From Spartobacteria bacterium (lineage in GTDB: Bacteria; Verrucomicrobiota; Verrucomicrobiia; Chthoniobacterales; Chthoniobacteraceae): a stretch of DNA of 64,000 nucleotides. Of this stretch, positions 25,523 to 53,075 are shown piece by piece; the stretch's first letter is position 1; every line of letters begins with the position of its first letter. The position numbers were made by a program, and so were the translations under genes. The notes under the pieces were generated by a model, which was not told where the DNA came from, did no database searches, and worked only from the letters and a program-made list of their open reading frames with translations. The stretch is from contig JAJPJG010000038.1 in the NCBI GenBank assembly GCA_021324395.1, forward strand, positions 1-64,000. Reading direction: 5' to 3'.

Positions 25523-28060
25523 GTGGATCGGAAAAGTCTTCCCATTTTCGAACTTGAGCGCGCGATCATCGATGCGCTCAAGGCTAGTCCGCGTCTTATT
25601 TTGCAGGCGCCGACCGGCTCGGGAAAATCGACGCAGGTGCCTCAGATACTGCTCGATCATGGCTTGCTCGGCGAGGGCGAGGTCGTGATTTTGCAGCCGC
25701 GTCGGCTTGCGACGCGCATGCTCGCGGCGCGTGTCGCGCACGAGCGCGGTGTGTTGCTCGGCGACGAAGTCGGTTATCAGATTCGCTTTGATCGCGTGGT
25801 GTCGGAAAAGACTCGCATCCGTTTCGTCACTGAAGGCGTGTTGCTGCGCCAGCTTCTGCAGCAGCCGTTGTTAAACAATGTTAGCGCCGTGATTTTCGAC
25901 GAATTTCATGAGCGGCATCTTTACGGCGACATCACGCTTGCACGTGTGCTCGACCTGCAGCAAACGGTCCGGCCCGATCTGAAAATCATCGTCATGTCCG
26001 CGACGCTCGACACTGGACAGCTCGAAAAATTTCTCGAGCCGTGCACGCTGCTGCAATCGGCAGGTCGCATGTTTCCCGTCGAGATCGAATATCTTGCGAA
26101 ACCATTTCGCGCCGAGGATTACGCTGTGTGGGATGTCGCCGCCGATGAGCTTGAGCGCGTCGCGATGCAGACCGATGGCGACGTGCTTGTATTCATGCCT
26201 GGCGCTTATGAAATCAGCCGCACGATCCAGGCGATTCGCGCGTCGCGTGTCGGTGACGAGTTTGTCGTGCTGCCGCTGCACGGCGAATTGCCAGTGGCTG
26301 ACCAGGACGCCGCGCTCGCGGATTACGGGCAACGAAAAGCGATCGTTTCGACAAACGTCGCGGAGACTTCGCTAACGATAGAAGGCGTGCGCATCGTGAT
26401 CGACAGCGGCCTCGCGCGCATCGCGCGGTTCGATCCATATCGCGGCATCAATACATTGCTCATCGAAAAAATTTCGCGCGCATCCTCGGATCAACGCGCG
26501 GGACGCGCCGGACGAACCGCGCCGGGAAAATGCGTGCGACTTTGGACCGAGCGCGAACATCTCGAGCGTCAGCCGCAGGAATTGCCAGAGGTGAAGCGGC
26601 TCGATCTGTCGGAAGTCGTGCTGACGCTGAAAGCAAGCGGCGTCGAGGACATCGGAAATTTCCGCTGGCTCGAACCGCCCGAGCCGCGCGCGCTGGAACG
26701 CGCGGAGACTTTGCTGAAGGATCTCGGCGCGCTCGACGAGCAGACCGGCGCAATCACGAAACTCGGTCGCCGCATGCTCGTGTTTCCCGTGCATCCGCGT
26801 TACGCGCGCATGTTGCTGGAGGCGCACGAGCGCGGCTGTGTGCGGGCGATTGCGCTCGTCGCGTCGCTGTCGCAAGGCCGTAATTTGCTGCGCAGAAGCG
26901 ATGGCAAACAAATGGAGCAAGATCGCGCGGACGTGCTCGGAGAAAAGGAAGTGTCGGATTTTTTCATCCTGATGCGCGCGTTTCGTTTTGCGGAACAAAG
27001 CAATTACAATCCGCAACGCTGCCGCCGGCTTGGGATCAATGGCCTCGCCGCGCGGGAAGCCGCGCAGACCCTTGAGCAATTTTTGAAAATCGCGCGCGAC
27101 GAAAAGCTTAACCTTGAGCGCACCGAAGCGAGCGATGAAGCCATCCAGCGCTGCGTGCTTGCCGGTTTCTCAGATCAAGTCGCGATGCGAATCGATGCCG
27201 GAACGCTTCGTTGCAATCTCGTCCACGGCCGCCGTGGTGTGCTCGCGCGCGAAAGTGTGGTGCAACACGCGCAGTTGCTCGTCGCGTCGGATGTGCGCGA
27301 GATCGAGATAAAAGGCGAGCTGACGACGCTGTTAAACACCGCGACCGCGATCGAGGAGTCATGGTTGCGGGAGCTTTTTCCCGATGCGTTCCGCACGGAA
27401 ACACGCGTAAGCTATGACCCCATTCAGCGCCGCGTTGTGGCGCGCACGCAGATGATGTTTCGCGATCTTGTGCTCGGCTCCTCGCTCACCGAAAAAGTTC
27501 CTCCCGACGAGGCCGCGCAGGTTTTGGCAAATGCAGTCATCGACGGCACGTGTGTGCTCGCGAACTGGGATAATTTCGTCGAGCAATGGATCACGCGCGT
27601 GAACCGCCTGCGTGAATGGATGCCGGAGTTGGAACTCCCCGCGATTGCCGATGACGAGCGCCGCGCAATCATCGAGCACATCTGCCATGGCGCGACGACT
27701 TACAAAGACATCAAGGATCGTGCGGTGCTGCCGGTCGTGAAGTCGTGGCTCTCGCCGATGCAGCAGGAACTCGTGGACAAATTCGTGCCGGAACGCGTGT
27801 CACTTCCAAATGGAAAAAAATGGAAAATCGTCTACGACGCGAAAGCAGCGCCGACTATCGCTGCGCGCATCCAGGAGCTATACGGCGTTGAAGGTAGTCT
27901 TACTATCGCGAGTGGACGCGTTCCTTTAGTGATCCAGGTGCTGGCACCTAGCCACCGGCCTATCCAGGTTACGCAAAACCTTTCCACTTTCTGGCGTGAA
28001 GCTTATCCGAAGATTAAGCAGGAGCTTCAGCGTAAATATCCAAAACACGAATGGCGCTAA
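25523..28060 (+). CDS. hrpB: ATP-dependent helicase HrpB (DEAH-box family)
   Basis: The start is a GTG at 25523. Motif I is QAPTGSGKSTQVP (about 29-41), motif II VIFDEFHERHLYGD, motif III SATLD, and the C-terminal RecA domain carries STNVAETSLTIEGV and QRAGRAGR. The helicase-associated domains and the HrpB-specific C-terminus follow (PEWR-like ending KYPKHEWR). Length 845 is typical. HrpB is a DExH helicase of uncertain physiological role. Its stop overlaps the next gene by 10 bp, which ties the following AT-richer gene cluster to this transcript or marks the insertion boundary of that cluster. Confidence 0.95.
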   Translation: MDRKSLPIFELERAIIDALKASPRLILQAPTGSGKSTQVPQILLDHGLLGEGEVVILQPRRLATRMLAARVAHERGVLLGDEVGYQIRFDRVVSEKTRIRFVTEGVLLRQLLQQPLLNNVSAVIFDEFHERHLYGDITLARVLDLQQTVRPDLKIIVMSATLDTGQLEKFLEPCTLLQSAGRMFPVEIEYLAKPFRAEDYAVWDVAADELERVAMQTDGDVLVFMPGAYEISRTIQAIRASRVGDEFVVLPLHGELPVADQDAALADYGQRKAIVSTNVAETSLTIEGVRIVIDSGLARIARFDPYRGINTLLIEKISRASSDQRAGRAGRTAPGKCVRLWTEREHLERQPQELPEVKRLDLSEVVLTLKASGVEDIGNFRWLEPPEPRALERAETLLKDLGALDEQTGAITKLGRRMLVFPVHPRYARMLLEAHERGCVRAIALVASLSQGRNLLRRSDGKQMEQDRADVLGEKEVSDFFILMRAFRFAEQSNYNPQRCRRLGINGLAAREAAQTLEQFLKIARDEKLNLERTEASDEAIQRCVLAGFSDQVAMRIDAGTLRCNLVHGRRGVLARESVVQHAQLLVASDVREIEIKGELTTLLNTATAIEESWLRELFPDAFRTETRVSYDPIQRRVVARTQMMFRDLVLGSSLTEKVPPDEAAQVLANAVIDGTCVLANWDNFVEQWITRVNRLREWMPELELPAIADDERRAIIEHICHGATTYKDIKDRAVLPVVKSWLSPMQQELVDKFVPERVSLPNGKKWKIVYDAKAAPTIAARIQELYGVEGSLTIASGRVPLVIQVLAPSHRPIQVTQNLSTFWREAYPKIKQELQRKYPKHEWR

Positions 28061-29766
28061 ACTCAGACCGCAAGAATGGTTTTTGCCTCCAGGTGAATCG
28101 AACGCAGCTAGCTGCGTTGTCTTATATTCTTATCCTGCTACTGCTCCTAAAGGTAGTCTGGGGCATGTGGAATTGGAAAGACCTCACGTCAGGCGACACG
28201 TCATGTTATTGCATCAGCGCTTATCAATGGGCGCTTCATGGAAAAATCAATGCGGGCGCAATGATTTATTCGCCTTTGTATGTGGTCTACTATTCCAAGT
28301 TCCTATCGTTTTTTAATAATGCTTATCCGGCCACGATAGCTCACCGCATCATCATTCTTTTGGCTCTTGGTTTAACGATTCTGGCTTTGTGTCGCTCGCT
28401 TCTTCCAAAGTCGATAGCATGGTTCATAGCTGCTTGGTGGCTCGCGTTGCCGATTAATTGGAATGCCTATTATGAAGTGCATCTCTTTGGGTTGTTCTTC
28501 TTTGTGTTCGGCAGTTGGCTTGCAGGGCTGCGGGATTGTGCAATGAATCGAGGCATTGCGCTGGCCAGTTTTTTTACCGGAGCGCTGTTGGTGCGAAATG
28601 AATTTCTCGTTGCTGCAGCGATTATGTCCGTCGTGCTCGTCGGCTATGAGTTGCGTAGAATACGATTGGCTCCAGGTGCTGGAACGCTTCTTCGGTCTAT
28701 TGCGTCAGCATTCGGCCCTTCTCTAGTGATTTTAATAGGAGCTATCGTCTTGTTTCAGGAGTCATTAAATAAGGATGTCCTGCGAGCTTTCCAATCCCGG
28801 CATCTTACAAATATGGGGCAAGTGCTTGCTTATGGCTATCAGCAGAGGCATCCAGAATGGACTCATAACCCGTGGACTGAGTATTCGCCATTAATGCAAC
28901 AAAAATTCGGGCGCCAGCTTGTTAGCTTTACTGATGCAGCTAGCATCAATCCGCAGGAGATCAGGGATTATGTATTATGGAATCTCAGCCTCGTGCCAAA
29001 CGGAATTCAACTCGCGTTGTTTAATAACTATTCAGGAAAGTATACCCCGGACTTTGCGGTGTGGCATGGAAGCAGAGCTAAAGCTTACGTATTAAGCTGT
29101 GTGTTGCTAATAGTGCTCGCAGCCGGCACTTATTCTTTGTGGCGCCAAAGAGAGATATGGAAACGATTTCTTAACCACCGGCGTGTTTGGGTGCTTGTTA
29201 CGATGGCCACGACTCTGCCGTCGGCATTCCTTGCGATTATAACGCAACGACCGCGGCCGAGTTACATCTTCACGCTTGCTCTTTTCGTAATGGTGGTCAC
29301 CGGCTTTTGCATGAGCGCTATGCTTCGCAACTTTCGTCTGCATCGAAGTTTTAATCGAATTTCTCTAGTTCTTGCTCTTTGCGTCCTTGTCTTTATTCCA
29401 GCGGGCAGCACAATCGTCACAGGGGAGAGGCAGTTATACGAGGTATACCAGCGGCTTTATCCCTATCGGCAGTTCTTCGCAGATACGTCAAATGTCTTTG
29501 CCTCGGATTCGTCCTGCTCAGTGGTTAGTAATTATCTTGGTGAAGGTTCTCATCTCAAGTCGTGCTACCTTCCAGGTGACTCACAAGCCGGCAGCGCATT
29601 TCAGCAATTTCTACAGCAAAACAAGGTCTCGTTGCTTTATCTTGCTGAGCAATCTCAACGCAGGCATGACTTCGCGGAATGGTGGACCAGCCCGGAAAGG
29701 AATCGCTGGACGATCGTGGCTTATGACGATAAAGCCAAATGGATTTTTCTGAAAAAGAATGGATAG
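28051..29766 (+). CDS. Polytopic GT-C-like membrane glycosyltransferase candidate
   Basis: The protein has 571 residues and about ten membrane segments (ALSYILILLLLLKVVWG, IIILLALGLTILALC, SCVLLIVLAAGTYSLW, LALFVMVVTGFCMSAML among them). A lumenal-type loop after the first helix holds the acidic GDTSCY, the place where GT-C enzymes keep their catalytic Asp. A soluble C-terminal part carries SDSSCSVVSNYLGEG. This resembles the dolichyl/undecaprenyl-phosphate-dependent glycosyltransferases of the inner membrane, but similarity is too low to name a donor. It overlaps hrpB by 10 bp and the GT2 gene by 8 bp. Base composition is visibly AT-richer than in hrpB. Confidence 0.7.
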   Translation: MALNSDRKNGFCLQVNRTQLAALSYILILLLLLKVVWGMWNWKDLTSGDTSCYCISAYQWALHGKINAGAMIYSPLYVVYYSKFLSFFNNAYPATIAHRIIILLALGLTILALCRSLLPKSIAWFIAAWWLALPINWNAYYEVHLFGLFFFVFGSWLAGLRDCAMNRGIALASFFTGALLVRNEFLVAAAIMSVVLVGYELRRIRLAPGAGTLLRSIASAFGPSLVILIGAIVLFQESLNKDVLRAFQSRHLTNMGQVLAYGYQQRHPEWTHNPWTEYSPLMQQKFGRQLVSFTDAASINPQEIRDYVLWNLSLVPNGIQLALFNNYSGKYTPDFAVWHGSRAKAYVLSCVLLIVLAAGTYSLWRQREIWKRFLNHRRVWVLVTMATTLPSAFLAIITQRPRPSYIFTLALFVMVVTGFCMSAMLRNFRLHRSFNRISLVLALCVLVFIPAGSTIVTGERQLYEVYQRLYPYRQFFADTSNVFASDSSCSVVSNYLGEGSHLKSCYLPGDSQAGSAFQQFLQQNKVSLLYLAEQSQRRHDFAEWWTSPERNRWTIVAYDDKAKWIFLKKNG

Positions 29767-31324
29767 CATGCCGTTGAGCACAGTGGAAGTATCGGGGCCG
29801 GTCGTTACGATCATTACGCCGTCCTACAATCAAGGAAGGTTCATTCGCGCAACTATTGAGAGTATCCTCGCACAGGACTACCCGAACATCGAATACCTTG
29901 TCGTCGATGGCGGGTCGACAGATCATACTATTTCCATTCTGCGCGAATTTGGAGAGCGGGTGCGATGGATTTCCGAGCGCGATCGCGGTCAAACCCATGC
30001 GATTAACAAAGGTCTCGCCATGACTGTAGGCGAGATTATTACCTGGGTTAATTCCGATGACGTGTTGGAACCCGGCGCTATTTCCGCCGCGGTTGCGGCT
30101 TTTCAAGAGGACCCGCGCACCGCGCTTGTTTACGGCAATGCACGCGAATTGAACGCAGAGGGACAGCATATCCGCGACAACTATCCGCCGGCGCCAAATG
30201 TTTGGGAGTTGGTGCATGGATGGGACTATATCATTCAGCCGGCATCCTTTTTCCGACGCAATAAGATGGAAGAAGTCGGCGGTCTCGATGAAGAACTGCA
30301 TTGGGCAATGGACTATGATCTGTTCATGCGACTGGCTCTGAACTATCCCATCAAGCGTGTCGATGCGTTCCTTGCCAGCTATCGCTTTTACGACGAGTGC
30401 AAATCATGCGCGGGCGGTTGGAAGCGCTACATGGAAATCGTCCGCGTTCTACGTCGCTATAATACGACGCACACTGCGCCTGCGTTCTTTTTATACGCAT
30501 GGGAGCTTGTGAATACGACACTTACCCGCCTGAACAACCGCGCCCGGCCTTTGCTTCGCAAAGCCACGCATCACCCAACGCAAAAGCTTCGCAGAAGAGC
30601 GGAGTTGTTTTTATATCCGCGAATTACCCGATGGTATTTTGATGGATGGGTGGCTCCCATTTTCGAATGGTATCTCTTGAATGAAGGCAAGGAGATGATA
30701 GAACTCCATGGTCATATTCCTCCTGAAAAATGTCTCGGAGATATCCAGCGGCTAAGGTTCATCGTGGATGGTATTCTTGTGCGCGAAATGATAATTGGTT
30801 GCGGCGACTTTAGCATTGCTGTTCCAATCCCAAAGACCCGCGGGCCCATGATTCATCTGCGTGTCGAGGCAAAGCGTTCTTTCATTCCTTCGCGCTTTTA
30901 TAAGGGTGGTGGTGACAATCGTCGCATTGCTTATCACTTAAAACATATCGGCGGGGCTTCTCCGAAAACGTGCAATGAACCTCAATGGTCAACAGGCTGC
31001 TTTGCCGACGGTTGGGCCGGGCCGCAGGTTAGTTCTTTGTTGCAGACGAATGAAGCCGCCGTCGAAATTACCGGCTGCATACCTGATGGGTATCCAAAGC
31101 TCCAAGGTCAAACCCTGAGATTAACCATCGACGGTAAAGTTCATCGAGACATCATGCTAAAGGAGGGCAGCTTCCGCGAAGTGCTGACTGTTCCCGCCCG
31201 CGGAAAGCCGTTCGAGTTGTGCCTTAACGCGTCGCACTGGTTCGTGCCGGCTTATGAAGAAAAGACCGATGACTATCGAAGGCTTGCCTTTCGATTGGAC
31301 GGCATCCGTTGCATTAGCGCATGA
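29759..31324 (+). CDS. Family 2 glycosyltransferase with two C-terminal repeat modules
   Basis: Residues 15-240 form a GT-A fold: ITPSYNQGRFIRATIESILAQ, YLVVDGGSTDHT, TWVNSDDVLEPGA (DxD-type), then LDEELHWAMDYDLFMRLA. A linker follows, then two related modules of about 100 residues, 300-400 and 415-520. Each has a GW..P opening, an I.G.IP strand, an IDG turn and a closing DD/DNRR.A.(H/R)L strand. These look like beta-sandwich carbohydrate-binding or scaffold domains. The second in-frame ATG at 29768 is an alternative start. The gene overlaps both neighbours (8 and 4 bp), so it is part of one unit with the P450 and acyl-activating genes. Confidence 0.88.
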   Translation: MDSMPLSTVEVSGPVVTIITPSYNQGRFIRATIESILAQDYPNIEYLVVDGGSTDHTISILREFGERVRWISERDRGQTHAINKGLAMTVGEIITWVNSDDVLEPGAISAAVAAFQEDPRTALVYGNARELNAEGQHIRDNYPPAPNVWELVHGWDYIIQPASFFRRNKMEEVGGLDEELHWAMDYDLFMRLALNYPIKRVDAFLASYRFYDECKSCAGGWKRYMEIVRVLRRYNTTHTAPAFFLYAWELVNTTLTRLNNRARPLLRKATHHPTQKLRRRAELFLYPRITRWYFDGWVAPIFEWYLLNEGKEMIELHGHIPPEKCLGDIQRLRFIVDGILVREMIIGCGDFSIAVPIPKTRGPMIHLRVEAKRSFIPSRFYKGGGDNRRIAYHLKHIGGASPKTCNEPQWSTGCFADGWAGPQVSSLLQTNEAAVEITGCIPDGYPKLQGQTLRLTIDGKVHRDIMLKEGSFREVLTVPARGKPFELCLNASHWFVPAYEEKTDDYRRLAFRLDGIRCISA

Positions 31325-32652
31325 GTGATCCTCCTATAAAAACTCCACCCGGCTTGGGCTTGCAGGAATCTCAAGAGCTGGCATCAGCCGTGTGTTCCTC
31401 CGCGGATTACCTGTCTGCTCTGGTGGAGCGATTCGGCGACGTCAGCCGTTACGTGAACAGCTACGGTCCGGTCTACTTCTTCAACCATCCTGATCACGTT
31501 CAAAGCATTTTGCTAAACCAAAAATATGAGCGCGCTCGCTTGGTAAAGCTCGTCCTCGGTGACGGACTCTTATCCAGTGATGGTGATTATTGGCGCTCGC
31601 AACGACGCCTGATCTCGCCGCAATTTCACGAGCACTGCATGCCGCATTTTGTTCCGATGATTGTTGATGCGACGAATGCAACTTTCGAAAGATGGCATCA
31701 GTCCGGCCGGATCGATGTCTCTTTCGAGATGAGAAGGCTAACTCTCGATGTGATCGTCAGGGCAATGTTCAGTCTTAGTATTGGTGACAAGTTGGATGAG
31801 TTATCGGACGCTGTAACTGTGCTAATCGAGGATCTCGGCACGCTCGGCGGCAGTCTTTTTAACTTACAAGAGCAGATTACGCCCGAAAGAAACGCACGGT
31901 TTCAGCGCGCTCTGAAATGTGTTGATAACTTTGCGCACGAGCTTCTCGCCAGCCGCCGCGTTAAGTCGCAGCAGAATCGTGATTTGGTTTCTCTTTTACT
32001 CAATGCAAAGGATGAATCCACAGGAATGCCTTTGAATGAGAAGCAGCTTCGAGATGAAATTGTCACAATGCTGCTGGCCGGCCATGAGACAACTGCGATT
32101 ACACTTGCTTGGGCGATCGATCTGCTTGCGAGAAATGCTGCGGCAAGGGAACGGCTTCGCACGGAAGTGGATCATGCTATTAGTGGCCGAAGCCCGCAAT
32201 ACGATGACTTAAATTCGCTAAACTATGCGCGCATGGTTATTGATGAAACGCTGCGATTGAATCCACCGGTGTGGTTTATGATGCGAAAGGCGGAGGTCGA
32301 TTCGGAACTTGGCGGCTATTTTATTCCCGCGAATACATCGGTGTTGATCTCCCCTTACACTACACATCGCCATAAGGAGTTTTGGAAGGATCCCGACTCT
32401 TTCGATCCTGAGCGGTTCTCGCAGGAACAGAGCAAGACGCGCCATCGTTATGCCTACGTTCCTTTTTCAACAGGGCGGCATCATTGCCTGGGGCACGCGT
32501 TCGCAATGATGGAAACCCAGTTCATTCTCGCGATGATTGCGCAACATTGGCAACTCACTCCCATGTCGGATCGCATCGAGCCCAACCCTGCGATTACCTA
32601 CCGCCAACGCGGTGAGCTCATGGTCAAAGCTATACCGCGCTACCAGCTATGA
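31321..32652 (+). CDS. Cytochrome P450
   Basis: The protein has 443 residues. The I-helix oxygen-binding motif is AGHETTAIT, the K-helix ExxR is ETLRLNPP with Glu and Arg in place, and the heme loop is PFSTGRHHCLGHAF with the axial Cys at about residue 389. There is no membrane anchor, so it is likely soluble. Similarity is to bacterial fatty-acid/alkane-type P450s (WFMMRKAE, SPYTTHRH). It would hydroxylate or epoxidise the lipid part of the product of this cluster, or the carrier-bound acyl group. Redox partners are not encoded nearby. Start and stop overlap neighbours by four bases (ATGA). Confidence 0.95.
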   Translation: MSDPPIKTPPGLGLQESQELASAVCSSADYLSALVERFGDVSRYVNSYGPVYFFNHPDHVQSILLNQKYERARLVKLVLGDGLLSSDGDYWRSQRRLISPQFHEHCMPHFVPMIVDATNATFERWHQSGRIDVSFEMRRLTLDVIVRAMFSLSIGDKLDELSDAVTVLIEDLGTLGGSLFNLQEQITPERNARFQRALKCVDNFAHELLASRRVKSQQNRDLVSLLLNAKDESTGMPLNEKQLRDEIVTMLLAGHETTAITLAWAIDLLARNAAARERLRTEVDHAISGRSPQYDDLNSLNYARMVIDETLRLNPPVWFMMRKAEVDSELGGYFIPANTSVLISPYTTHRHKEFWKDPDSFDPERFSQEQSKTRHRYAYVPFSTGRHHCLGHAFAMMETQFILAMIAQHWQLTPMSDRIEPNPAITYRQRGELMVKAIPRYQL

Positions 32653-34343
32653 CTGCCGAAACTACCTTGGTAGAATTGCTGCGTTCTCATGCGTTAAGAC
32701 AAGGCGGGAAGCCTGCATTTACTTTTTTACCCGATGGGGAAAAGGAACAAGGCTCGCTGACTTTTGCGCAACTGGATCAGCGGGCACGTGCGATCGGTGC
32801 TTATTTACAGGCCCGGCGGATGCAGGGTAAGCCGGTGTTGTTACTATTTCCATCAGGCCTCGACTTTATCGCTGCATTCGCGGGTTGTCTTTACGCTGGA
32901 GCGATTCCGACTCCGGCGCACGTGCCGCGTCTCAATCGAAACCTATCGCGCCTGCGCATGTTGGCAGCGGATGCGAAGCCTGAAGTTGCTTTTACCACCG
33001 ATACCGTTTTTGACCGCATTCAGCCGATGCTAGTCGAAGCGGGGCTGAAGGTTTTGTCGTGGGTTACCACCGGCGAAGTTTCAGAAGAGCTGGCCGGGAG
33101 TTGGTGTGAACCGCAGATTACACAGGATACGCTGGCGTTGCTGCAATATACTTCCGGGTCAACGTCCGCGCCGAAAGGAATCATGGTAAGCCACGGCAAT
33201 TTGATCGCAAATCATCGAATGATTGAACGCGCGTTCGAGCACACGCATGATTCTACCTTTGTGACATGGCTGCCGCTCTTTCATGACATGGGACTTATCG
33301 GAACTGTGCTCCAGGTTATCTATCTCGGCAGTCATTGTGTATTGATGCCGCCCGAGTGTTTTTTGGTGAAACCTCTCCGCTGGCTTCAGTCGATTTCGCG
33401 CTACAAGGCTCACACCACCGGCGCGCCGAACTTTGCTTATGACCTATGCTGCCGGCGTGTCACGGCGGAGCAGCGCGAGCAACTCGATCTTAGCCACTGG
33501 CAGGTTGCTTTCAATGGCTCGGAGCCGGTTCGCGCCCAGACTTTGAAAAACTTTACCGAGACTTTTGCCACGTGCGGCTTTCGTGCGACAACGTTTTACC
33601 CGTGCTATGGACTCGCCGAGGCCACCTTGTTTGTTTCCGGTGCGACAAAAAGTTCGGAGCCGGTCACCGCATCTTTCGCCGGTGATTCCTTGCAGCATGG
33701 AAAAGCAGTCGAGGCTGACGGTGAACTATCACGCACATTTGTAAGTTGCGGTTACGGCTGGCTTGAACAGGAAATCGTAATAGTGGATCCCGAGACAAAA
33801 CAACGCTGTGCCGATGGAGCAATCGGCGAGATTTGGGTTAAAGGTCCCAATGTGGCTCAAGGCTTCTGGAAACAGCCGGAGCTAACCTCCCGGCATTTCA
33901 AAGCATACCTTTTCGATAGTAACGATGGGCCTTTTCTTCGCACAGGCGATGCGGGTTTTTTCCACAAGGGAGAGCTATACATAGCCGGAAGACTGAAGGA
34001 CTTGATCATCATTGCCGGGCGCAACCACGATCCCGCGGATATCGAGCAGACTGTCGAGACGAGTCATCCCGGGATTCGTCCTGGATGTTGCGCCGCATTT
34101 TCAATCGACTTTGGCGGCGACGAAAAGCTTGTGGTCCTGGCCGAGCTTCACCAGCACGAAACCCAGACGAAAGCCATTACCGATGCCGTCAGGCGATCTG
34201 TCGCGGAGAATCACGATCTTAGCATTCATGCCTTGGAATTTCTGTTGCCGGCGAGGATTCCGAAGACATCGAGCGGCAAGATACAGCGCCATCTTTGCCG
34301 TGCGCGTTACCTGGCCGGCTCATTGCACACACAGGAGATTTGA
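32649..34343 (+). CDS. Fatty acyl-AMP ligase (FAAL)
   Basis: This 564-residue adenylate-forming enzyme has LLQYTSGSTSAPKGIMVSHG (P-loop/A3), NFAYDLCCRRV, FYPCYGLAEATLFVSG (A5) and GRLKDLIIIAGRNHDPADIEQ (A8). The motif order and the HDPADIE ending are those of FAALs rather than acyl-CoA ligases. FAALs activate a fatty acid as acyl-AMP and pass it to an acyl carrier protein, which is encoded immediately downstream. It overlaps the P450 by 4 bp. Confidence 0.93.
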   Translation: MTAETTLVELLRSHALRQGGKPAFTFLPDGEKEQGSLTFAQLDQRARAIGAYLQARRMQGKPVLLLFPSGLDFIAAFAGCLYAGAIPTPAHVPRLNRNLSRLRMLAADAKPEVAFTTDTVFDRIQPMLVEAGLKVLSWVTTGEVSEELAGSWCEPQITQDTLALLQYTSGSTSAPKGIMVSHGNLIANHRMIERAFEHTHDSTFVTWLPLFHDMGLIGTVLQVIYLGSHCVLMPPECFLVKPLRWLQSISRYKAHTTGAPNFAYDLCCRRVTAEQREQLDLSHWQVAFNGSEPVRAQTLKNFTETFATCGFRATTFYPCYGLAEATLFVSGATKSSEPVTASFAGDSLQHGKAVEADGELSRTFVSCGYGWLEQEIVIVDPETKQRCADGAIGEIWVKGPNVAQGFWKQPELTSRHFKAYLFDSNDGPFLRTGDAGFFHKGELYIAGRLKDLIIIAGRNHDPADIEQTVETSHPGIRPGCCAAFSIDFGGDEKLVVLAELHQHETQTKAITDAVRRSVAENHDLSIHALEFLLPARIPKTSSGKIQRHLCRARYLAGSLHTQEI

Positions 34344-34344
34344 T

Positions 34345-35892
34345 TTGAATACCGAAGCTATTGAGTCATGGGTTGCGACGTGGATTGCTCGCGCGCTGGA
34401 GGTGGAAGAAAACGATATTAATACTTCCGAGTCTTTTACCGGGCTTGGACTCGACTCGTTAAGTCTCTATACTTTGACCGGAGATATCTCGGCGTGGATG
34501 GGACGCGATTTACCCGTTACGATTGCATGGGAATATCCTACGGTCAAAGGTCTCGCGTTACATCTCGGTTCCTTGCCCAAGGAGAGTGATGAAAGCATTC
34601 CGCACGTTTCGCGTGATCAGCCATTGCCGCTTAGCTTTAGCCAGGAACGAATGTGGAACCACGCGCAAAAGCCGCGTGATCGCGACTTTGTGGTAAGGCG
34701 TTACATCCTGACCGGCGAGGTCGATCGCCGCGCGCTGGAGCGAGCTGTCGATGATTTTGTCCGTCGTCATGAGATTTTGCGAACTACCTTTGCGGGTGTA
34801 AATGGTGAGTCCTGTCAGGTTATCCAATCGCCTGCTGCTGGAAACCTTCTTTATACTGACCTAAGCGATCACTCTGCGGCTGCCGACCAAGCTGCCGCGC
34901 TCATTCAAGAGCTGGCGGATCGCGGCATTGATCTGGCAAACGGTTCGCTCTTTTATGCATGGCTACTAAAGCATCATGAGACGGAGCATAGCCTTGCATT
35001 TGTTCTGCACCACATGACTTATGACGCGCGCTCTTTCGATGTGCTGCACGAGGAAATCAGCGCGCTCTACAATGCCTACCGCAGTGGAAGTGAGTCGCCT
35101 TTGCCCGAGCTTCGCGTGCAGGTGGCGGACTTTGCGGCGTGGCAACGCGAATGGCTGCGCGAAGGCGGCGAAGCTTATGGTGCGGCGGTCGAATGGTGGA
35201 AAAAGCATTGGCCGGCGGGTGTCGCAACGCTTAACGAGCTGCCTTTTTCATGCAAAGCGAAGCCGGATAATCCCGACGCGATTCATCCTTACTACACCGT
35301 TACTTTTTCGCCTGAACTGCTCGAGCGCCTTAGAGCTTTGTGCCGCCGTGAAAATGTGACGCTTTATACCGTGATGTTCGCGGCCTTTGCGCGGCTGCTC
35401 CATGAGTATTCACAAAGGGAGCAGTTAGTCATCGGCACTTATGTCTCGCAGCGCAGCAAGCCATCGACTGCGGCGATGATGGGCTTTTTCGTGAACCTGC
35501 TTTCGCTTTGCATCGATCATCGCGGGCAGCCTTCTTTTCGCGAGCTGATGAGACGCATCCAGCAAACGATGCAGGAAGCGACGATCCACCAGTATCTGCC
35601 ATTCGAGAGGCTTTCCGATGAGCTGGAGAAAAGCGAGGACCGCAAGCCGCCGGCTGCGGAAATCATCTTTCAGCTCACCAAGACCACGAAGGCGCTGCAA
35701 CTTGACGGACTGACGAATTACCTCGCGCCGACTTCGCGCCAGTTCAGCAAGCCGTGGAGACTGTCGCTCACGGTCGTCGAGGGCGAGAACAGCCTGCAGG
35801 CGAGCGCGGGGTTCGATCCCGAATTGTATGCGCGCGAGGGCGTGATCGAGATGGTGCAGCGCTACGCGGCGTTTTTGGAAGCGAATGTTTAG
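34345..35892 (+). CDS. Acyl carrier protein-condensation domain fusion
   Basis: The start is a TTG at 34345, one base after the FAAL stop, with AGGAG at 34332-34336. An apparent ATG at 34012 would run the gene backward through the FAAL gene and is rejected. Residues 1-80 form an acyl/peptidyl carrier domain with the phosphopantetheine Ser in GLGLDSLSLY. Residues ~95-510 form an NRPS condensation domain with the active motif HHMTYDARS (HHxxxD). So one protein both receives the fatty acyl group from the FAAL and carries it to an acceptor amine or hydroxyl. There is no adenylation domain, so the acceptor is free, perhaps a glycan made by the upstream GTs. The domain could instead be a PapA-like O-acyltransferase. 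Confidence 0.85.
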   Translation: MNTEAIESWVATWIARALEVEENDINTSESFTGLGLDSLSLYTLTGDISAWMGRDLPVTIAWEYPTVKGLALHLGSLPKESDESIPHVSRDQPLPLSFSQERMWNHAQKPRDRDFVVRRYILTGEVDRRALERAVDDFVRRHEILRTTFAGVNGESCQVIQSPAAGNLLYTDLSDHSAAADQAAALIQELADRGIDLANGSLFYAWLLKHHETEHSLAFVLHHMTYDARSFDVLHEEISALYNAYRSGSESPLPELRVQVADFAAWQREWLREGGEAYGAAVEWWKKHWPAGVATLNELPFSCKAKPDNPDAIHPYYTVTFSPELLERLRALCRRENVTLYTVMFAAFARLLHEYSQREQLVIGTYVSQRSKPSTAAMMGFFVNLLSLCIDHRGQPSFRELMRRIQQTMQEATIHQYLPFERLSDELEKSEDRKPPAAEIIFQLTKTTKALQLDGLTNYLAPTSRQFSKPWRLSLTVVEGENSLQASAGFDPELYAREGVIEMVQRYAAFLEANV

Positions 35893-43545: not shown

Positions 43546-46500
43546 GTGTTTGCCGCCGTAAGTAAAACCAACCTTTATCGATTGTTTCGACAGTTGTTGC
43601 TCGCGCTCACCCTGTGCACGACAGCCTCAGTGCACTCCAGCACGCTTAGCTGGACCGGAGCAGCGGGCGACAGCAATGTCAGCACCGCCGGCAACTGGAG
43701 CCTCGCACAAGCGCCTGCCTCGGGCGACAGCTTGATTTTTACCGGGACAAATTCGCTCGCGCCGAAACTTTCCACCGCGTTAACGGTAAGTTCGCTTTCA
43801 TTTGCAACCAATGCATCTGCGTTTTCCCTCACGGGCACCGGCACCTACACCATCAACACGAGCTCCGGCATTACCAACAACAGTGTGAATTTGCAGACAG
43901 TTGCCAGCGCACTTGCGCTTGGCGCCAACCAGACGTGGAACGCCGCAGCCGGCGATCTCGCATTTTACGGAGCGGTAAATCTAGGTTCGCGGACGCTGAC
44001 GCTGACCGGCTCGAACAACATCACGATCAGCGGCAACATCAGCGGAACGGGCGCGATGACAAAAACCGGAACCGGTAAATTAACGCTGAGCGGCTCTAAT
44101 GCTTACAGCGGCACGACCACGTTAAGCGCCGGGACGATTGTGATCGGCAGCAATAATGCCGTTGGCACCGGCACCTTTTCGCTCGGCACGGCGAACGTGG
44201 ACGTGAGCGGCGCGCGCGCGCTTGCGAATGCAGTCACCCTCGCCGGCGACACGACATTTCTTGGTTCGGATAATTTGACGATGAGTGGTGCGGTGAGCAT
44301 CACGGGCAATCGCACACTCACCGTCAGCGGGACAGGTAAACTCACCTTCAGCGGCGTCGTTGACACGACGAAAAACAGTTACACGTGGACCAAAAGCGGT
44401 AGCGGCACGCTCGCACTGTTGGCTGCGAACACGTTTACGAAACTGAAGCTTAGCAGCGGCACATTGATTACCGGTAACGACAGCGCCCTTGGAAGCAGCA
44501 CGTTTTCGCTCGGCACCGCGACGCTGCAGGGCAACGGAAACGGCACACGCACATTCGCAAACAGTGTTACTCTGGTTGGAAATCCTACGTTCGGGGGAAC
44601 TGACGATTTGATTTTCACGGCGAGCGCGAGTCTCACCGGAAGTCGCACATTCACAATCAACAACTCGAATGTCACTTTCAGCGGCGCGATCACCGGAACC
44701 GGCTACGCACTGACAAAAAACGGCCCGGGAAACCTGATTCTCAGCGGCAATTCCGCGAATACATACACTGGAGCAACAACAGTGAATGACGGAAAACTCG
44801 TGCTCGCCAAGACCGCAGGTGTGAATGCGTTCGGCGGATCACTGGCGATCGGCGATGGCAGCGGCTATGCAGCTTCGACAATCGTGCAACTTAACGCGTC
44901 GAATCAAATCGCCGACACCACGGCGGTCACGGTCAATGCCGACGGACAACTCAATTTGCAGACTTACGCTGAGGCGATTGGAGCTTTGACAATGACCGGC
45001 GGCAGCATCATCGTCACAAACCGTCTGGACCTCGGTGGGAATGTAACCGTGAGCGCAGCGGGCACAAACTCAGCAGCAATCAGCACGAATCTCGGATTAA
45101 ACGGCGCGCGCACTTTTACGATCAACGACAACGGGTCGACAACGGACGTGGACCTGACGATTGCGGGCGTAATTTCCGATGGCAGCGTGACGAGTGCGCT
45201 TAACAAAGTCGGTTCAGGTTTCGTCGCCCTCAACGGAACGAACACCTACACCGGCGGGACAACATTGAGCGCGGGTGGTATTTCGGCGGGCACAAACAGC
45301 GCATTCGGCACCGGCACGATTTCACTTGGCGCGGCAACAATTCAATCGAGCAGTGGCGCGCGCTCTTTTAGCAATGCGTTAACACTCGCTGGCGACACCA
45401 TTTTCTCCGGCACGGATAATCTCGCCTTCAGCGGCTCCGCGGCGCTGACCGGCAATCGCACGCTGACCATCAACAACACGACGACAACATTTAGCGGCGC
45501 AATCGCGCAGGACATCGCAGGCCGCACGCTGACAAAAACCGGCGTCGGCACGCTCGCCCTTACCGGCACGGGAGCGAACACGATCACCGGCACGACGACC
45601 GTGAATGCCGGCACGCTTTTGCTCGGGAAAAATTCCGGTGCGGCGATCGGCGGCGATCTGGTAATCGGCGATGGTTCAGGCACGGATACCGTGCAGTTTT
45701 CCACAGCGAATCAGCTCGCAAGCGCCGCGAACGTGACGGTGAATGGAAGCGGTGTTTTGGATTTGAATGGAAACAACCAAGCGATTGCGTCGCTAACGCT
45801 CGGCGGCGGAGCGTTGATAACCACCGGAACCGGAGCGTTAACACTCGGCGGTGACGTGTCGCACAATGGCTCTGGCGCTCAAACCGCAACGATTTCCGGG
45901 AAAATCGATCTCGGCGGAACAACGCGCACGTTTACGGTGAACGACTCATCCGCTGCAACTGACCTGACAATTTCGGCGGTGATCTCGAACGGTGCGCTCA
46001 CGAAAACAGGCGGCGGCACGATGTTGCTTAGCGCAAGCAACAGCTACACCGGCACGACGACGATTAATGGCGGAACTTTGCAGCTCGGAGCAACAAGCGC
46101 GATCGCGAGCGCGTCATCCGTTATTTTAAATAACAGTGCGACATTTGACCTGAACGGTTTCAACGCGACGCTCGCTTCGCTCTCCGGCACAGGCAATGTC
46201 GCTCTCAGCGGCGGCACGCTTACTTTTGGCAACGGCAACTCGACTACATTTGGCGGCCCAATTTTCGGCAACGGCAGCATCATTAAAAATGGGTCGGGAA
46301 CATTTACGCTGAGCGGTAGCGCGAGTTTTACCGGCGCAACGAATGTCAACTCGGGCACGCTGCAATTCAGCGGGACAAATATCGCGCCATCGAGTTCGGC
46401 CACCACGATTGCATCCGGAGCGTCGCTGGATTTAAACAGCTTTAACGAAGTGCTCGGATCCCTTTCCGGCAGCGGAAACGTCACGCTCGGCAGCGGCTAT

Positions 46501-49500
46501 CTGACGGTCGGCGGTAACAACAGCTCGACGACATTTTCCGGAATTATCAGCGGAAGCGGCGGCTTAATCAAAACCGGCACGGGCGCGATGACCGTCACGA
46601 ATGCAAACACGTTTGATGGTTTGGTGACGATCAATGACGGCTCGCTCACGCTCAGCGGCTCGAATGCGAAGCTCGCGAGCGCATCTGCGTTTTACATCGG
46701 CAATCGCACCACGCTTACGCTCGACAACTCGACAGGCACAAACACAAACCGCATTGCCGATACCGCGGCGATTTGGTTCAACGGTGGCACGTTTGCGTTT
46801 GTCTCGGGCAGTAACGGCTCGACCGAAACGGTCGGCGCGCTGAATGCGATCGGCGGCGCATCCACTGTCTCGATTGCAAATGGTGGCACATCATCGGCAC
46901 TGACGTTTAATTCGCTCGGGACGATCGCGAGTGGTGCAACGGTGAATTTTTCCGCAAGCGGCGGCACACTCGGATCCGGTGTTGGCGGTCCGCATATTTA
47001 CGTCATCGGCCAGGCGAGTGGGTTCATGGGTGGTTGGGCGACCGTCGGCAGCAACTTCGCGGAATATTACGCCGACGGTGTGCGCGCGTTTAGCAATTAT
47101 TATACGGGCAGTGACGGCATCAATGTGAATGACGGAACAAAAGTCGTGCTGCTTTCCGGCAGTTCGCCGGGCACAGCCACGACGCTGACGAATGCGGGCA
47201 CGACGTCAAACTTGAGCCTCAGCATTTCCGACGTTTCGTCGATCGATCTCGGCACCGCGACGACACGCACCTTAAATCTCGTCAGCGGCGGATTGATCAA
47301 AAGCAGCGCGACAGCGACCACGATTTCGGGACAGGGTCGATTGACGGCCGGTGGAACTGCAACCGGTTCGCTCGCGATTTCGATCGACGCGGGCCATACG
47401 CTCAGCATCGCGTCGAGCATCATCGACAATGCGGGCGCGAATGGAACTTACGGCGATGCCGATGACGGCGTAGTCTCGCTCGCGAAAACGGATGCGGGAC
47501 TGCTCGTGCTCACCGGCTCAAATGCATTTAGCGGAAACGTCTTTGTCAATGGCGGCACGCTGCGGATCTCCGCCGAAAACAATCTGGGCGCGAATGGCAA
47601 TGACGTGATCTTCAATAGCGGCACGCTAAATGTGGCGAGTGGCTTCACTGCGAGTAGCGGCAAAATTTTCACGATTAGCTCCGACCTCACCGGCACCATT
47701 GACGTCGATGCCGGGCAAACGCTCACGCTTGCGAATGCGGCGAATGTTTTAACGAGTGGAAACGCCGCGAGCGTTCTCTACAAAAATGGTGGCGGCATCT
47801 TTGTCCTGCAGAATGCCGACACGTCGTTTACCGGCACGTTGCAGGTGAATGCCGGGGTCGCTGAGTTGCGAAACGCGCAGTCACTCGGCGGCGCGATTCT
47901 GCTCAACAGCGGGACACTTCGTTTGCGCAACGATGCCGATACAAATTTCGGAAACACCGTTTCGCTTTCCGCGGACTCCACCATCGAGGTGACGCGGTTG
48001 ACCGGCACTTCCGGCGCTGTGAATCTCACGCTCGCCAAACTTTCAGCCGGTGCAAACACGTTGACCATCACCGGCAGCAATGGCGCATCGCTGGCTTTTG
48101 GCTCCGTTAATTTGACGGCGAATACGACGTTTAACACTTCGACCGCTACCGTCTCGCTCAGCTCAATTGGCGGCGGATTCGGTTTTACAAAAACCGGCAC
48201 AAACACGCTGACGCTCAGCGGCACGAGCAGCTACACGGGCGCGACGACGATCAGCGCCGGAACCTTGAGAATCGCCGGGACGAATGCAACGTCGCCACTT
48301 TCTGCAGTGGCACTGGCTTCGGGTGCGATTTTTGATTTGAATAACTACAGCACGAAAATCGCGGTGCTTAGCGGTTCGGGCTCGATCGCGCTTGGAAGCG
48401 CAGTGCTCACCGCGGGCGATGTGAGCTCCAGCACTTTCGCAGGCGCGCTCAACGGAGCCGGTGGATTTATAAAATCGGGTGCCGGTATCCTGACTCTCGG
48501 CGGCACGTCGGGTTATTCGGGCGCAACGACGATCAGCGCCGGCACATTGCAACTGGGCACAAACAACGCGATCGCCAGCGCGTCAAACATCTCCATCGCG
48601 AACGGCGCGACTTTTGATCTGAACAATTTCAATCAAACGACGACGGTGCTGACAGGCTCTGGAAATGTAACGCTCGGCAGCGGCACGCTGACGCTCGGCA
48701 CGTCCAGTGGTTCGAGCACCTTCAGCGGCGTGCTTAGCGGAAGCGGCTCGGTTGTTAAAAACGGAACAAGCACGCTGGTTTTAAACAGCGGAAATACGCT
48801 CAGCGGCGCCATTACAATCAACGCCGGCATTCTCGACGTGGAAAACCTGTCGGCCCTCGGCGGCACGACAGGCGGAACGGTCGTCAATTCCAGCGCGGAG
48901 TTGCAGATCGGCACATCGGTCAGCGGCGAAGCGCTTACCCTAAGCGGCTCGGGCAGCAGTGCAGGTGCGCTCCACAACGTGAGCGGCACCGTCACGTGGG
49001 GCGGGCCGGTTTCGCTCGCGGCGAACAGCACGGTCGCTTCCGACGCGGGCACGCTTACGCTCAGCGGCTCCGTTTCCACCGGCGCAAACGTGCTGACGAC
49101 AACCGGCAGCGGAAACATCATCATCAGCGGCGCGATCAGCGGCTCGGCAGGGCTGGCGAAAAGCGGCACGGGCACGCTGACGTTGAGCGGATCAAATTCG
49201 TTTGGCGGAACTGTTAACGTGACTGCCGGCGTGCTTTCCGTCCAGCACAGCGCGGCTCTTGGTGCGAGCGGTGCGGGGAATGGAACCACGATCGGCAGCG
49301 GCGCGGCGGTGCAGATCAGCAACGCGAGCGGAATCAATATCGCCGGGGAAATTTTGACACTCAGCGGCGCCGGCATTGCAAACACCGGCGCGTTATCAAA
49401 TACCAGCGGGAACAACTCCTGGAGCGGCAATGTGGTGCTCGCGGCCGATTCCACGATCGGGGTCGCGCAATCGCAGGACGCGCTTACGATTTCCGGCGTA

Positions 49501-50796
49501 ATCAGCGAAAGCGGCACCGCGAGTGCACTGACAAAAGCCGGGACAGGCACGCTCGTATTTTCCGCCGCGAATACTTACAGCGGAGCGACCAACATTGTTG
49601 CGGGGACTCTGCAGCTTGCGGCCTCTGATCGCATCAACGATGCATCAGCCGTCACCATCAGCAGCGGCGCCTTGCTTGATCTGAATGATTACAACGAGAC
49701 GATCGGCTCGCTCGCAGGCGCGGGCGATGTAGACACCGGCAGCGCTACCGGCGGAACGCTGACGGTCGGCGTTAACGACCGTTCAACAACGTTTTCAGGC
49801 AACATTTCCGGCATTGGCGATGTCGTCAAAACGGGCACGGGCACCCTGACACTCACCGGCACGAACAGCACCTATTCCGGCGATACCTACGTGAATTCCG
49901 GCAAGCTCGCGATCGACAACGACGCGCGACTTGGCGCTGACGGCGGCCTCATTTTCAGCGGCGGCACATTGCTCGCGAGCGGATCGTTTACCTCAAGCCG
50001 CGTGGTTGCGGTGAATGCCGATAGCGCGATCGATACAAATGGCAACACCGTGATTCTCAGCGGCTCCCTCAGCGGCACGGCAAACCTCGCGAAGAATGGC
50101 GCGGGAACGCTGAAACTCAGCGGATCGAATGCCGGTTTTACCGGTTCATTTGCGGTGAACGGCGGAAAGCTCGCGGTTAACGCTGCGTTTACGAACAGCA
50201 CCGTCACGCTGGCTAGTGGCGCCGAACTCGATGGCAGCGGCAGCGTCAACGACGTCGCTGCAGCCAGCGGTTCAACCGTTGCTCCTGGCAATAGCGGGGC
50301 CGGACAGCTCGGCACGGGCAACTTCAACCTCGGCAGCGGCGCGCACCTTTCGATCGAGATCGGCGGCACCACGGCCGGCACGGGCTATGACGAGATAAGT
50401 GTAACCGGCTCGGTTACAATTTCCGGCGCGCTCGACGCTTCGTTCGTCAATGGCTACACGCCAACACACGTGGCGAGTTTGAGTGTTCCCTACGTGATCG
50501 GCGGTGCGAACACCACGCTCGACAAGTTTTTCATCATCATCAACGACGGCGCCGACGCAGTGAACGGCACATTTTCAAATCAAGTCATGTCGAATACCAT
50601 CTTCGGCACGCTGCCGACGATTACGTTTGGAAATCAACCGTTCGCGATCAGCTACACCGGCGACGCAGCGACCAATAGCACCATTGGCGGCAACGACATC
50701 GTCCTCACCGCGATCCCGGAGCCGAACGAGCTGACGTTCTTCGCGGGCGGAATTGCGCTGCAGATCGCATGGTTCCGCCTGCGCAAGCGCCGCTGA
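43546..50796 (+). CDS. Giant autotransporter-type beta-strand repeat surface protein with PEP-CTERM-like tail
   Basis: A GTG start at 43546 opens a 2416-residue protein with a signal peptide (LFRQLLLALTLCTTASVHS). Nearly the whole length is built from passenger-associated repeats of the kind TKTGTGTLTLSGSN-TYSGATTISAGTL, about 20-25 times, which predict a long right-handed beta-solenoid rich in Gly, Ser and Thr. There is no autotransporter barrel. Instead the last ~30 residues are IPEPNELTFFAGG, a hydrophobic span and WFRLRKRR, matching the PEP-CTERM sorting signal used with exosortase. It is thus predicted to be attached to or exported across the outer surface. The TACGTA motif upstream and the response regulator before it hint at two-component control. 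Internal repeats make misassembly possible. Confidence 0.9.
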   Translation: MFAAVSKTNLYRLFRQLLLALTLCTTASVHSSTLSWTGAAGDSNVSTAGNWSLAQAPASGDSLIFTGTNSLAPKLSTALTVSSLSFATNASAFSLTGTGTYTINTSSGITNNSVNLQTVASALALGANQTWNAAAGDLAFYGAVNLGSRTLTLTGSNNITISGNISGTGAMTKTGTGKLTLSGSNAYSGTTTLSAGTIVIGSNNAVGTGTFSLGTANVDVSGARALANAVTLAGDTTFLGSDNLTMSGAVSITGNRTLTVSGTGKLTFSGVVDTTKNSYTWTKSGSGTLALLAANTFTKLKLSSGTLITGNDSALGSSTFSLGTATLQGNGNGTRTFANSVTLVGNPTFGGTDDLIFTASASLTGSRTFTINNSNVTFSGAITGTGYALTKNGPGNLILSGNSANTYTGATTVNDGKLVLAKTAGVNAFGGSLAIGDGSGYAASTIVQLNASNQIADTTAVTVNADGQLNLQTYAEAIGALTMTGGSIIVTNRLDLGGNVTVSAAGTNSAAISTNLGLNGARTFTINDNGSTTDVDLTIAGVISDGSVTSALNKVGSGFVALNGTNTYTGGTTLSAGGISAGTNSAFGTGTISLGAATIQSSSGARSFSNALTLAGDTIFSGTDNLAFSGSAALTGNRTLTINNTTTTFSGAIAQDIAGRTLTKTGVGTLALTGTGANTITGTTTVNAGTLLLGKNSGAAIGGDLVIGDGSGTDTVQFSTANQLASAANVTVNGSGVLDLNGNNQAIASLTLGGGALITTGTGALTLGGDVSHNGSGAQTATISGKIDLGGTTRTFTVNDSSAATDLTISAVISNGALTKTGGGTMLLSASNSYTGTTTINGGTLQLGATSAIASASSVILNNSATFDLNGFNATLASLSGTGNVALSGGTLTFGNGNSTTFGGPIFGNGSIIKNGSGTFTLSGSASFTGATNVNSGTLQFSGTNIAPSSSATTIASGASLDLNSFNEVLGSLSGSGNVTLGSGYLTVGGNNSSTTFSGIISGSGGLIKTGTGAMTVTNANTFDGLVTINDGSLTLSGSNAKLASASAFYIGNRTTLTLDNSTGTNTNRIADTAAIWFNGGTFAFVSGSNGSTETVGALNAIGGASTVSIANGGTSSALTFNSLGTIASGATVNFSASGGTLGSGVGGPHIYVIGQASGFMGGWATVGSNFAEYYADGVRAFSNYYTGSDGINVNDGTKVVLLSGSSPGTATTLTNAGTTSNLSLSISDVSSIDLGTATTRTLNLVSGGLIKSSATATTISGQGRLTAGGTATGSLAISIDAGHTLSIASSIIDNAGANGTYGDADDGVVSLAKTDAGLLVLTGSNAFSGNVFVNGGTLRISAENNLGANGNDVIFNSGTLNVASGFTASSGKIFTISSDLTGTIDVDAGQTLTLANAANVLTSGNAASVLYKNGGGIFVLQNADTSFTGTLQVNAGVAELRNAQSLGGAILLNSGTLRLRNDADTNFGNTVSLSADSTIEVTRLTGTSGAVNLTLAKLSAGANTLTITGSNGASLAFGSVNLTANTTFNTSTATVSLSSIGGGFGFTKTGTNTLTLSGTSSYTGATTISAGTLRIAGTNATSPLSAVALASGAIFDLNNYSTKIAVLSGSGSIALGSAVLTAGDVSSSTFAGALNGAGGFIKSGAGILTLGGTSGYSGATTISAGTLQLGTNNAIASASNISIANGATFDLNNFNQTTTVLTGSGNVTLGSGTLTLGTSSGSSTFSGVLSGSGSVVKNGTSTLVLNSGNTLSGAITINAGILDVENLSALGGTTGGTVVNSSAELQIGTSVSGEALTLSGSGSSAGALHNVSGTVTWGGPVSLAANSTVASDAGTLTLSGSVSTGANVLTTTGSGNIIISGAISGSAGLAKSGTGTLTLSGSNSFGGTVNVTAGVLSVQHSAALGASGAGNGTTIGSGAAVQISNASGINIAGEILTLSGAGIANTGALSNTSGNNSWSGNVVLAADSTIGVAQSQDALTISGVISESGTASALTKAGTGTLVFSAANTYSGATNIVAGTLQLAASDRINDASAVTISSGALLDLNDYNETIGSLAGAGDVDTGSATGGTLTVGVNDRSTTFSGNISGIGDVVKTGTGTLTLTGTNSTYSGDTYVNSGKLAIDNDARLGADGGLIFSGGTLLASGSFTSSRVVAVNADSAIDTNGNTVILSGSLSGTANLAKNGAGTLKLSGSNAGFTGSFAVNGGKLAVNAAFTNSTVTLASGAELDGSGSVNDVAAASGSTVAPGNSGAGQLGTGNFNLGSGAHLSIEIGGTTAGTGYDEISVTGSVTISGALDASFVNGYTPTHVASLSVPYVIGGANTTLDKFFIIINDGADAVNGTFSNQVMSNTIFGTLPTITFGNQPFAISYTGDAATNSTIGGNDIVLTAIPEPNELTFFAGGIALQIAWFRLRKRR

Positions 50797-52954: not shown

Positions 52955-53030
52955 TGGAGCCAACGACGGGATTCGAACCCGTGACCTGCTGATTACGAAT
53001 CAGCTGCTCTACCAGCTGAGCTACGTTGGC
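52955..53030 (-). tRNA. tRNA-Thr(CGT), intact
   Basis: Reading from 53030, GCCAACG acceptor strand, D-arm AGCTCAGCTGGTAGAGC, anticodon arm GCTGA-TTCGTAA-TCAGC (anticodon CGT), T-arm GTTCGAATCCC, then CGTTGGC, T and encoded CCA. All stems pair. A degraded copy of its 5' half lies in the same orientation at 57953-57976, marking this gene as an integration site. Confidence 0.97.
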
Positions 53031-53075
53031 TTCTACTCTGTAAAATGGCTGATTTTCAATTCCGCCTTTGACTCG

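What the first reader, a model, noticed from the sequence alone, without database searches (positions are those of the whole stretch)
28051..35892. Compact, AT-richer five-gene cluster: two glycosyltransferases, P450, FAAL and ACP-condensation protein
The five genes overlap by 4-8 bp or adjoin within 1 bp. FAAL loads a fatty acid onto the ACP, the fused condensation domain should move it to a free amine or hydroxyl, the P450 can oxidise it, and the GT2 plus GT-C-like protein supply sugars. There is no adenylation or ketosynthase module, so this is neither a normal NRPS nor a PKS. A glycan or glycolipid as acyl acceptor is inferred. It is visibly AT-richer than hrpB before it, suggesting transfer.
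Basis: partly seen in the sequence, partly recalled or inferred. Interest (0 to 1): 0.75.

Follow-up and report, generated by a model that had tools for sequence, protein, structure and literature searches.

The report
Three-gene fatty-acid conjugation cassette plus glycosyltransferases
A bacterium carries a small gene set, found in the same order in a few distant relatives, that probably activates a fatty acid, oxidises it and attaches it to some other molecule without the usual peptide-synthesis machinery; what it is attached to is unknown.

Summary
The five genes are real. They overlap by 4-8 bp or lie 1 bp apart, and the stretch is 52.0% GC against a genome background of 57.9 ± 1.9% (0 of 166 background windows as low).

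Comparison with relatives divides the cluster. P450 – fatty acyl-AMP ligase (FAAL) – ACP-Condensation didomain is a conserved three-gene cassette. It occurs in the same order at five other loci, in four genomes of another family of the same class. In all three gene trees the six copies form one clade (100/100, 100/100, 100/99) with congruent grouping of the relatives. No relative's cassette has an adjoining glycosyltransferase, A or KS gene. The two glycosyltransferase-type genes are specific to this window. In the window's own order (213 genomes searched) only this genome has a FAAL of this cassette type.

The best mechanism is a stand-alone acyl-conjugating unit. FAAL loads a fatty acid onto the ACP, the P450 oxidises the chain, and the Condensation domain passes it to an amine or hydroxyl. 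This resembles the FUM14 T-C didomain with its separate ligase, or a lipopeptide FAAL:ACP:C start module without the rest. The acceptor is unknown, and a glycan acceptor is not supported by conservation. I rate it a new variant of a known kind.

The parts
28051..29766 (+). Gene 1: polytopic membrane protein, 571 aa, GT-C-like by topology only; window-specific part
   Evidence: no family hit; about 8 hydrophobic segments and an acidic GDTS motif after the first one; only one relative found, 30% identity over 563 aa, inside a surface-polysaccharide-type locus
29759..31324 (+). Gene 2: GT2 glycosyltransferase, 521 aa, with a C-terminal region of two similar repeats of no known family; window-specific part
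   Evidence: PF00535 at residues 17-127; best plasmid hits cover only the N-terminal 58%; repeats read directly from the sequence
31321..32652 (+). Gene 3: cytochrome P450, 443 aa, conserved cassette gene
   Evidence: PF00067 289.8 bits; heme loop FSTGRHHCLG, I-helix AGHETT, ExxR present; cassette clade 100/99
32649..34343 (+). Gene 4: fatty acyl-AMP ligase (FAAL), 564 aa, conserved cassette gene
   Evidence: Best solved relatives are FAAL-type (7r7f 567 bits, 3kxw 431 bits, FadD32); FAAL models score high in NCBIfam; cassette clade 100/100
34345..35892 (+). Gene 5: acyl carrier protein-Condensation didomain, 515 aa, conserved cassette gene
   Evidence: PP-binding 9-74 and Condensation 94-513; GLDSL attachment site, HHMTYDA active-site motif; cassette clade 100/100
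31321..35892 (+). Conserved P450-FAAL-(ACP-C) cassette
   Evidence: Same order and strand in L057, L075, L076, L077, L078

Best explanation
Genes 3-5 are a self-contained acyl-conjugation cassette. The FAAL makes a fatty acyl-AMP and loads the chain onto the phosphopantetheinylated ACP of gene 5 (inferred from family). The P450 oxidises the chain, most likely while it is on the ACP or as free acid (inferred). The Condensation domain fused to that ACP then transfers the chain to the amine or hydroxyl of a soluble or lipid acceptor rather than to an aminoacyl carrier protein, releasing an oxidised fatty amide or ester (inferred). In this genome two upstream, translationally coupled glycosyltransferase-type genes probably glycosylate the acceptor or the product (adjacency only). 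Shown: gene content, motifs, conservation of the three-gene unit, co-inheritance. Not shown: substrate, acceptor, order of steps.
For: Conserved order P450-FAAL-ACP-C at five other loci. All three genes form one clade each, with (L057,L075) and (L076,(L077,L078)) recurring in every tree. Catalytic motifs kept: HHxxxD in all six C domains, GxDS in all six ACPs, heme-Cys loop in all six P450s. FAAL and gene 5 are collinear with a FAAL-ACP-C NRPS start module (37-39% identity over about 1,075 aa to cyanobacterial NRPSs). No A, KS or TE gene adjoins any of the six copies. One PPTase-family gene was found in the genome. Precedents: FUM14, a T-C didomain working with a separate A-domain-like protein, forms ester bonds in vitro (PMC3705289); SgcC5, a free-standing C enzyme, forms ester and amide bonds (PMC10212144).
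Against: The acceptor is unknown and a partner A-PCP protein encoded elsewhere was not excluded. The C-domain motif ends in A instead of G in the window and three relatives (HHxxxDA), so activity is not certain. Some relatives' ACP-C proteins end in a short aromatic tail that could dock to a partner. No structure or biochemical test was possible.
Confidence: 0.52

Rival explanations
1. Trans-acting lipo-initiation module: the cassette supplies an oxidised acyl chain to an NRPS encoded elsewhere, as in the FAAL:ACP:CIII start of daptomycin-type lipopeptides.
For: FAAL-ACP-C is the lipopeptide start architecture (PMC9113097); the genome has one other Condensation domain, on contig C3, in an A-PCP | KS-AT-ACP-aminotransferase-C-A fragment.
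Against: In known start modules the C domain sits on the first elongation NRPS; here it ends the protein. No relative has NRPS genes adjoining the cassette. The C3 Condensation domain groups with NRPSs of family members in which no cassette-type FAAL was found.
Confidence: 0.2
2. Glycolipid pathway: the two glycosyltransferase-type proteins build a lipid-linked sugar and the Condensation domain acylates it.
For: All five genes are in one tight, co-oriented, AT-rich run with overlapping ends; the only gene 1 relative found lies in a surface-polysaccharide-type locus.
Against: None of the five other cassettes has an adjoining glycosyltransferase; gene 1 has no recognised family; GC rises from 47.7% (gene 1) to 55.2% (gene 5), so the parts may have different histories.
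Confidence: 0.2
3. Remnant of a decayed lipopeptide cluster whose elongation modules were lost.
For: Collinear with the N-terminus of FAAL-ACP-C NRPSs; the usual HHxxxDG is HHxxxDA in the window.
Against: Five intact overlapping ORFs; the same three-gene form is found at five other loci and forms its own clades, so this is a stable architecture.
Confidence: 0.05

Closest known systems
FUM14 (T-C didomain NRPS of fumonisin biosynthesis) with FUM10
   Same: Carrier-Condensation didomain with no A domain, plus a separate A-domain-like gene; FUM14 esterification was shown in vitro (PMC3705289, PMC10212144)
   Different: Fungal, makes tricarballylic esters of fumonisin; here a FAAL is the partner and a P450 is part of the unit; sequence subtype not compared here
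FAAL:ACP:CIII lipopeptide initiation (daptomycin, A54145) and FAAL-ACP-C NRPS start modules (PRK05691 type, cyanobacterial NRPSs)
   Same: Same three activities; 37-39% identity over FAAL-ACP-C in Leptolyngbya and Nostoc NRPSs
   Different: No elongation module after the C domain; C domains form a separate clade; a P450 gene in all six copies
SgcC5-type free-standing condensation enzymes
   Same: Could act on a soluble hydroxyl or amine acceptor
   Different: SgcC5 is free-standing; here the ACP is fused to the C domain
Gloeothece verrucosa PCC 7822 plasmid cluster P450 / FAAL-ACAD / ACP / C-ACP-TE / ACAD
   Same: Same gene types in the same order
   Different: FAAL fused to acyl-CoA dehydrogenase, separate ACP, C followed by ACP-TE, P450 only about 25% identical
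PapA / sulfolipid-type FAAL-PKS-acyltransferase systems (from general knowledge)
   Same: FAAL-activated acyl chain moved to a sugar by a C-superfamily enzyme
   Different: PapA5 model scores only 30 bits against a cut-off of 396; no PKS

Membership tests
Fatty acyl-AMP ligase (FAAL) | ANL fold with FAAL-type relatives as nearest kin | tested here: met
   Best solved matches are FAAL-type (7r7f, 3kxw, 5d6j, FadD32); NCBIfam FAAL models 370-445 bits, though below their own cut-offs
Fatty acyl-AMP ligase (FAAL) | Forms acyl-AMP and loads an ACP, not CoA | not testable with these tools
   Needs an enzyme assay
NRPS Condensation domain | PF00668 match and HHxxxDG active site | tested here: met
   238 bits against a cut-off of 30.6; HHMTYDA: both His and the Asp kept, final G replaced by A, as in three of five relatives
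FAAL:ACP:CIII lipopeptide initiation | FAAL, ACP and C domain encoded together | tested here: met
FAAL:ACP:CIII lipopeptide initiation | C domain sits on the first elongation module (C-A-T) | tested here: not met
   C domain ends the protein; no such module adjoins the window copy or the five relatives
FUM14-type T-C didomain | Carrier-C didomain without A domain, separate ligase gene | tested here: met
FUM14-type T-C didomain | C domain falls in the FUM14 sequence subtype; forms esters | not tested
   No FUM14 reference sequence was in the tree; activity needs an assay
PapA acyltransferases | Match to PapA models | tested here: not met
   PRK09294 30.4 bits against a cut-off of 396
GT-C glycosyltransferases (gene 1) | Multi-pass membrane protein with a recognised GT-C family match | tested here: inconclusive
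   About 8 hydrophobic segments, no family match even at E = 10; structure prediction not available
P450-FAAL-(ACP-C) cassette defined here | Three genes in this order, each in the cassette clade | tested here: met

The most novel reading that the evidence does not exclude
An undescribed family of autonomous three-gene lipid-conjugating cassettes: a bacterial FAAL-fed, FUM14-like ACP-Condensation didomain, always paired with a P450, makes oxidised fatty esters or amides without adenylation or ketosynthase modules; in this genome the product is also glycosylated.
Probability: 0.4. Interest if true: 0.65.

Novelty: new variant of a known kind. Interest (0 to 1): 0.5.

Why it matters
If true, this is a minimal FAAL-Condensation route to modified lipids. 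It is small enough (about 4.6 kb) to move whole into a heterologous host. It would show that the lipopeptide start module has become an independent acyl-transfer system. It would also give genome miners a searchable signature (P450-FAAL-ACP-C with nothing after the C domain); whether standard cluster finders flag it was not tested here.

Tried and rejected
PapA-type acyltransferase for gene 5: rejected on score. Decayed NRPS remnant: unlikely, since the form is conserved at five other loci. FAAL-ACP-P450 fusion operons in the same order (G014, G060, G687, G692) looked like a one-chain version, but both their FAAL and P450 belong to other clades, so they are a separate system. A genome-contig scan with gene 5 gave only one distant NRPS. 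A plasmid search with P450+FAAL+ACP-C joined gave only the Gloeothece cluster with all gene types in order, and it differs in domains. The first FAAL tree left out near outgroups and was redone. Gene 1 and gene 2 searches in plasmids gave nothing useful. Literature searches found no description of this cassette, within an open-access library only. Promoter and terminator scans were close to shuffled expectation.

Full report
Observation. The five ORFs are present, on one strand and tightly packed: 28051-29766, 29759-31324, 31321-32652, 32649-34343, and 34345-35892 with a TTG start behind AGGAG. Overlaps are 8, 4 and 4 bp, then a 1-bp gap. Gene 1 overlaps hrpB by 10 bp if its annotated ATG is right. 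Families: gene 2 GT2, gene 3 P450, gene 4 AMP-binding with FAAL models among the best, gene 5 PP-binding plus Condensation. Gene 1 matches no Pfam family even at E = 10; it has about eight hydrophobic segments, so 'GT-C-like' remains a guess. The next gene downstream is a TPP-dependent, indolepyruvate-decarboxylase-like enzyme on the other strand. There is no adenylation or ketosynthase module in the run.

Composition. The 7,842-bp cluster is 52.0% GC. The 166 same-size windows from the rest of the window and about 200 kb of the same genome average 57.9% (sd 1.9, minimum 52.2%); none is as low. GC rises along the cluster: 47.7, 51.9, 51.3, 54.0, 55.2%. Relatives' cassettes are 58.5-62.5% GC, like their own surroundings, so they are not an obvious direct source.

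The conserved unit is three genes. A phylum-wide FAAL search (388 genomes) gave one stand-alone FAAL at 52% identity in a genome of another family (f18) of the same class, G309. Its neighbours are a P450 and an ACP-C protein in the same order. A search of that order found G567, G508 (two copies) and G516. All have P450-FAAL-ACP-C in the same order and strand, with gene gaps or overlaps of a few bases where starts are clear (L057: 3-bp gap and 4-bp overlap; L076: 4- and 19-bp overlaps). A profile search of 68 f18 genomes found the cassette in four genomes, five copies, two of eleven genera. In the window's own order (213 genomes) the only other strong FAAL hits are four FAAL-ACP-P450 fusions of a different clade. 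Distribution is therefore patchy.

Co-inheritance. In maximum-likelihood trees the six cassette copies form one clade for the C domain (100/100 among 67 C domains, including FAAL-start, internal NRPS and free-standing ones), the FAAL (100/100 among 35) and the P450 (100/99 among 20). The groups (L057,L075) and (L076,(L077,L078)) recur in all three. The window's exact place between them is not resolved (bootstrap 86-91 with low SH-aLRT, or open).

What flanks the cassette elsewhere. L057 and L075 have an old-yellow-enzyme-type gene and an LRR protein on either side. L076 has a desaturase, a DUF3419 protein, a hexapeptide-type protein and an AurF-like protein upstream. L077 and L078 have a lipid A acyltransferase-heptosyltransferase (GT9) fusion downstream, close to other apparently housekeeping genes. 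None has an adjoining glycosyltransferase of the window's kinds, or an A, KS or TE gene. The GT9 fusion near L077 and L078 is the nearest sugar enzyme; it was not seen at the other three loci and looks like housekeeping (inference). Part of the L076 and L077 ORF listing was cut in the output, but a tblastn of genes 1 and 2 against all held loci found no match in the five cassette loci. The two glycosyltransferase-type genes of the window are thus local additions. Gene 1 has one relative in the samples searched (97 relatives and 368 genomes across the phylum), in a locus with sugar-nucleotide, sulfotransferase-like and ABC export genes (read from the translations).

Mechanism. FAAL plus gene 5 align collinearly with the FAAL-ACP-C start of an NRPS model (FAAL at model 9-564, ACP-C at 595-1094), and 37-39% identical FAAL-ACP-C starts exist in cyanobacterial NRPSs. 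Motifs are intact: YTSGSTSAPKG and KTSSGK in the FAAL, GLDSL in the ACP, HHMTYDA in the C domain, FSTGRHHCLG in the P450. Hence loading of a fatty acid on the ACP and transfer by the C domain is the natural reading. In daptomycin-type systems the C domain is part of the first elongation module (PMC9113097); here it ends the protein in all six copies. The closest functional precedent is FUM14, a T-C didomain that makes ester bonds alongside a separate A-domain-like protein (PMC3705289; PMC10212144). I therefore favour direct transfer to a non-carrier acceptor. P450 timing, acyl chain and acceptor are inferred or unknown. The genome search found one PPTase-family gene for ACP activation and one second P450.

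Alternatives. A trans NRPS partner is possible: the genome has one other C domain, on a 6.6-kb contig with A-PCP | KS-AT-ACP-aminotransferase-C-A, both ends cut. That C domain groups with NRPSs of family members in which no cassette-type FAAL was found, which argues against a dedicated partner. Acylation of a glycan made by genes 1-2 is possible in this genome only.

Limits. No structure model could be made. Novelty rests on an open-access library and on the collections named. Promoter and terminator scans were close to shuffled expectation.

Noticed in passing
L033 8916-14423; L034 1166-6676; also L080, L081: A FAAL-ACP-P450 single-chain fusion (1135 aa); in L033 and L034 it is followed by a sulfotransferase and an NAD_binding_4 (thioester-reductase-like) protein. 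Four genomes of the window's order; both FAAL and P450 in other clades than the cassette.
   Followed up: partly
L030 (own genome contig C3, 6618 bases): Hybrid assembly-line fragment: A-PCP end, then KS-AT-ACP-aminotransferase-C-A start, cut at both contig ends.
   Followed up: partly
window 52955-58000: A second AT-rich stretch (48-50% GC) directly beside tRNA-Thr(cgt), with a fatty acid desaturase at 54100-55200: possible island.
   Followed up: no
window 62188-62711: Tandem array with 21/42/63-bp periods (about 70% alike), followed by a CATTGGT-type 7/21-bp array (88-98% alike).
   Followed up: no
window 43546-50796: 2416-aa protein of autotransporter-type repeats with a PEP-CTERM-like end.
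   Followed up: no
L074 12001-22124: Gloeothece verrucosa plasmid cluster: P450, FAAL-acyl-CoA dehydrogenase fusion, ACP, C-ACP-thioesterase, acyl-CoA dehydrogenase.
   Followed up: partly
L075, L077, L078 ACP-C proteins; L118 4829-8764: Relatives' ACP-C proteins end in short aromatic tails (YWSNFFR, EWENMFGPG, GWDSLFGPG) missing in the window; a methyltransferase-A-PCP-C protein in G516 ends similarly (LWGDDFSG). Possible docking tail.
   Followed up: no
window 29759-31324, residues about 305-521 of gene 2: The GT2 protein carries two similar C-terminal repeats (about 95 aa each) without any Pfam family above cut-off.
   Followed up: no
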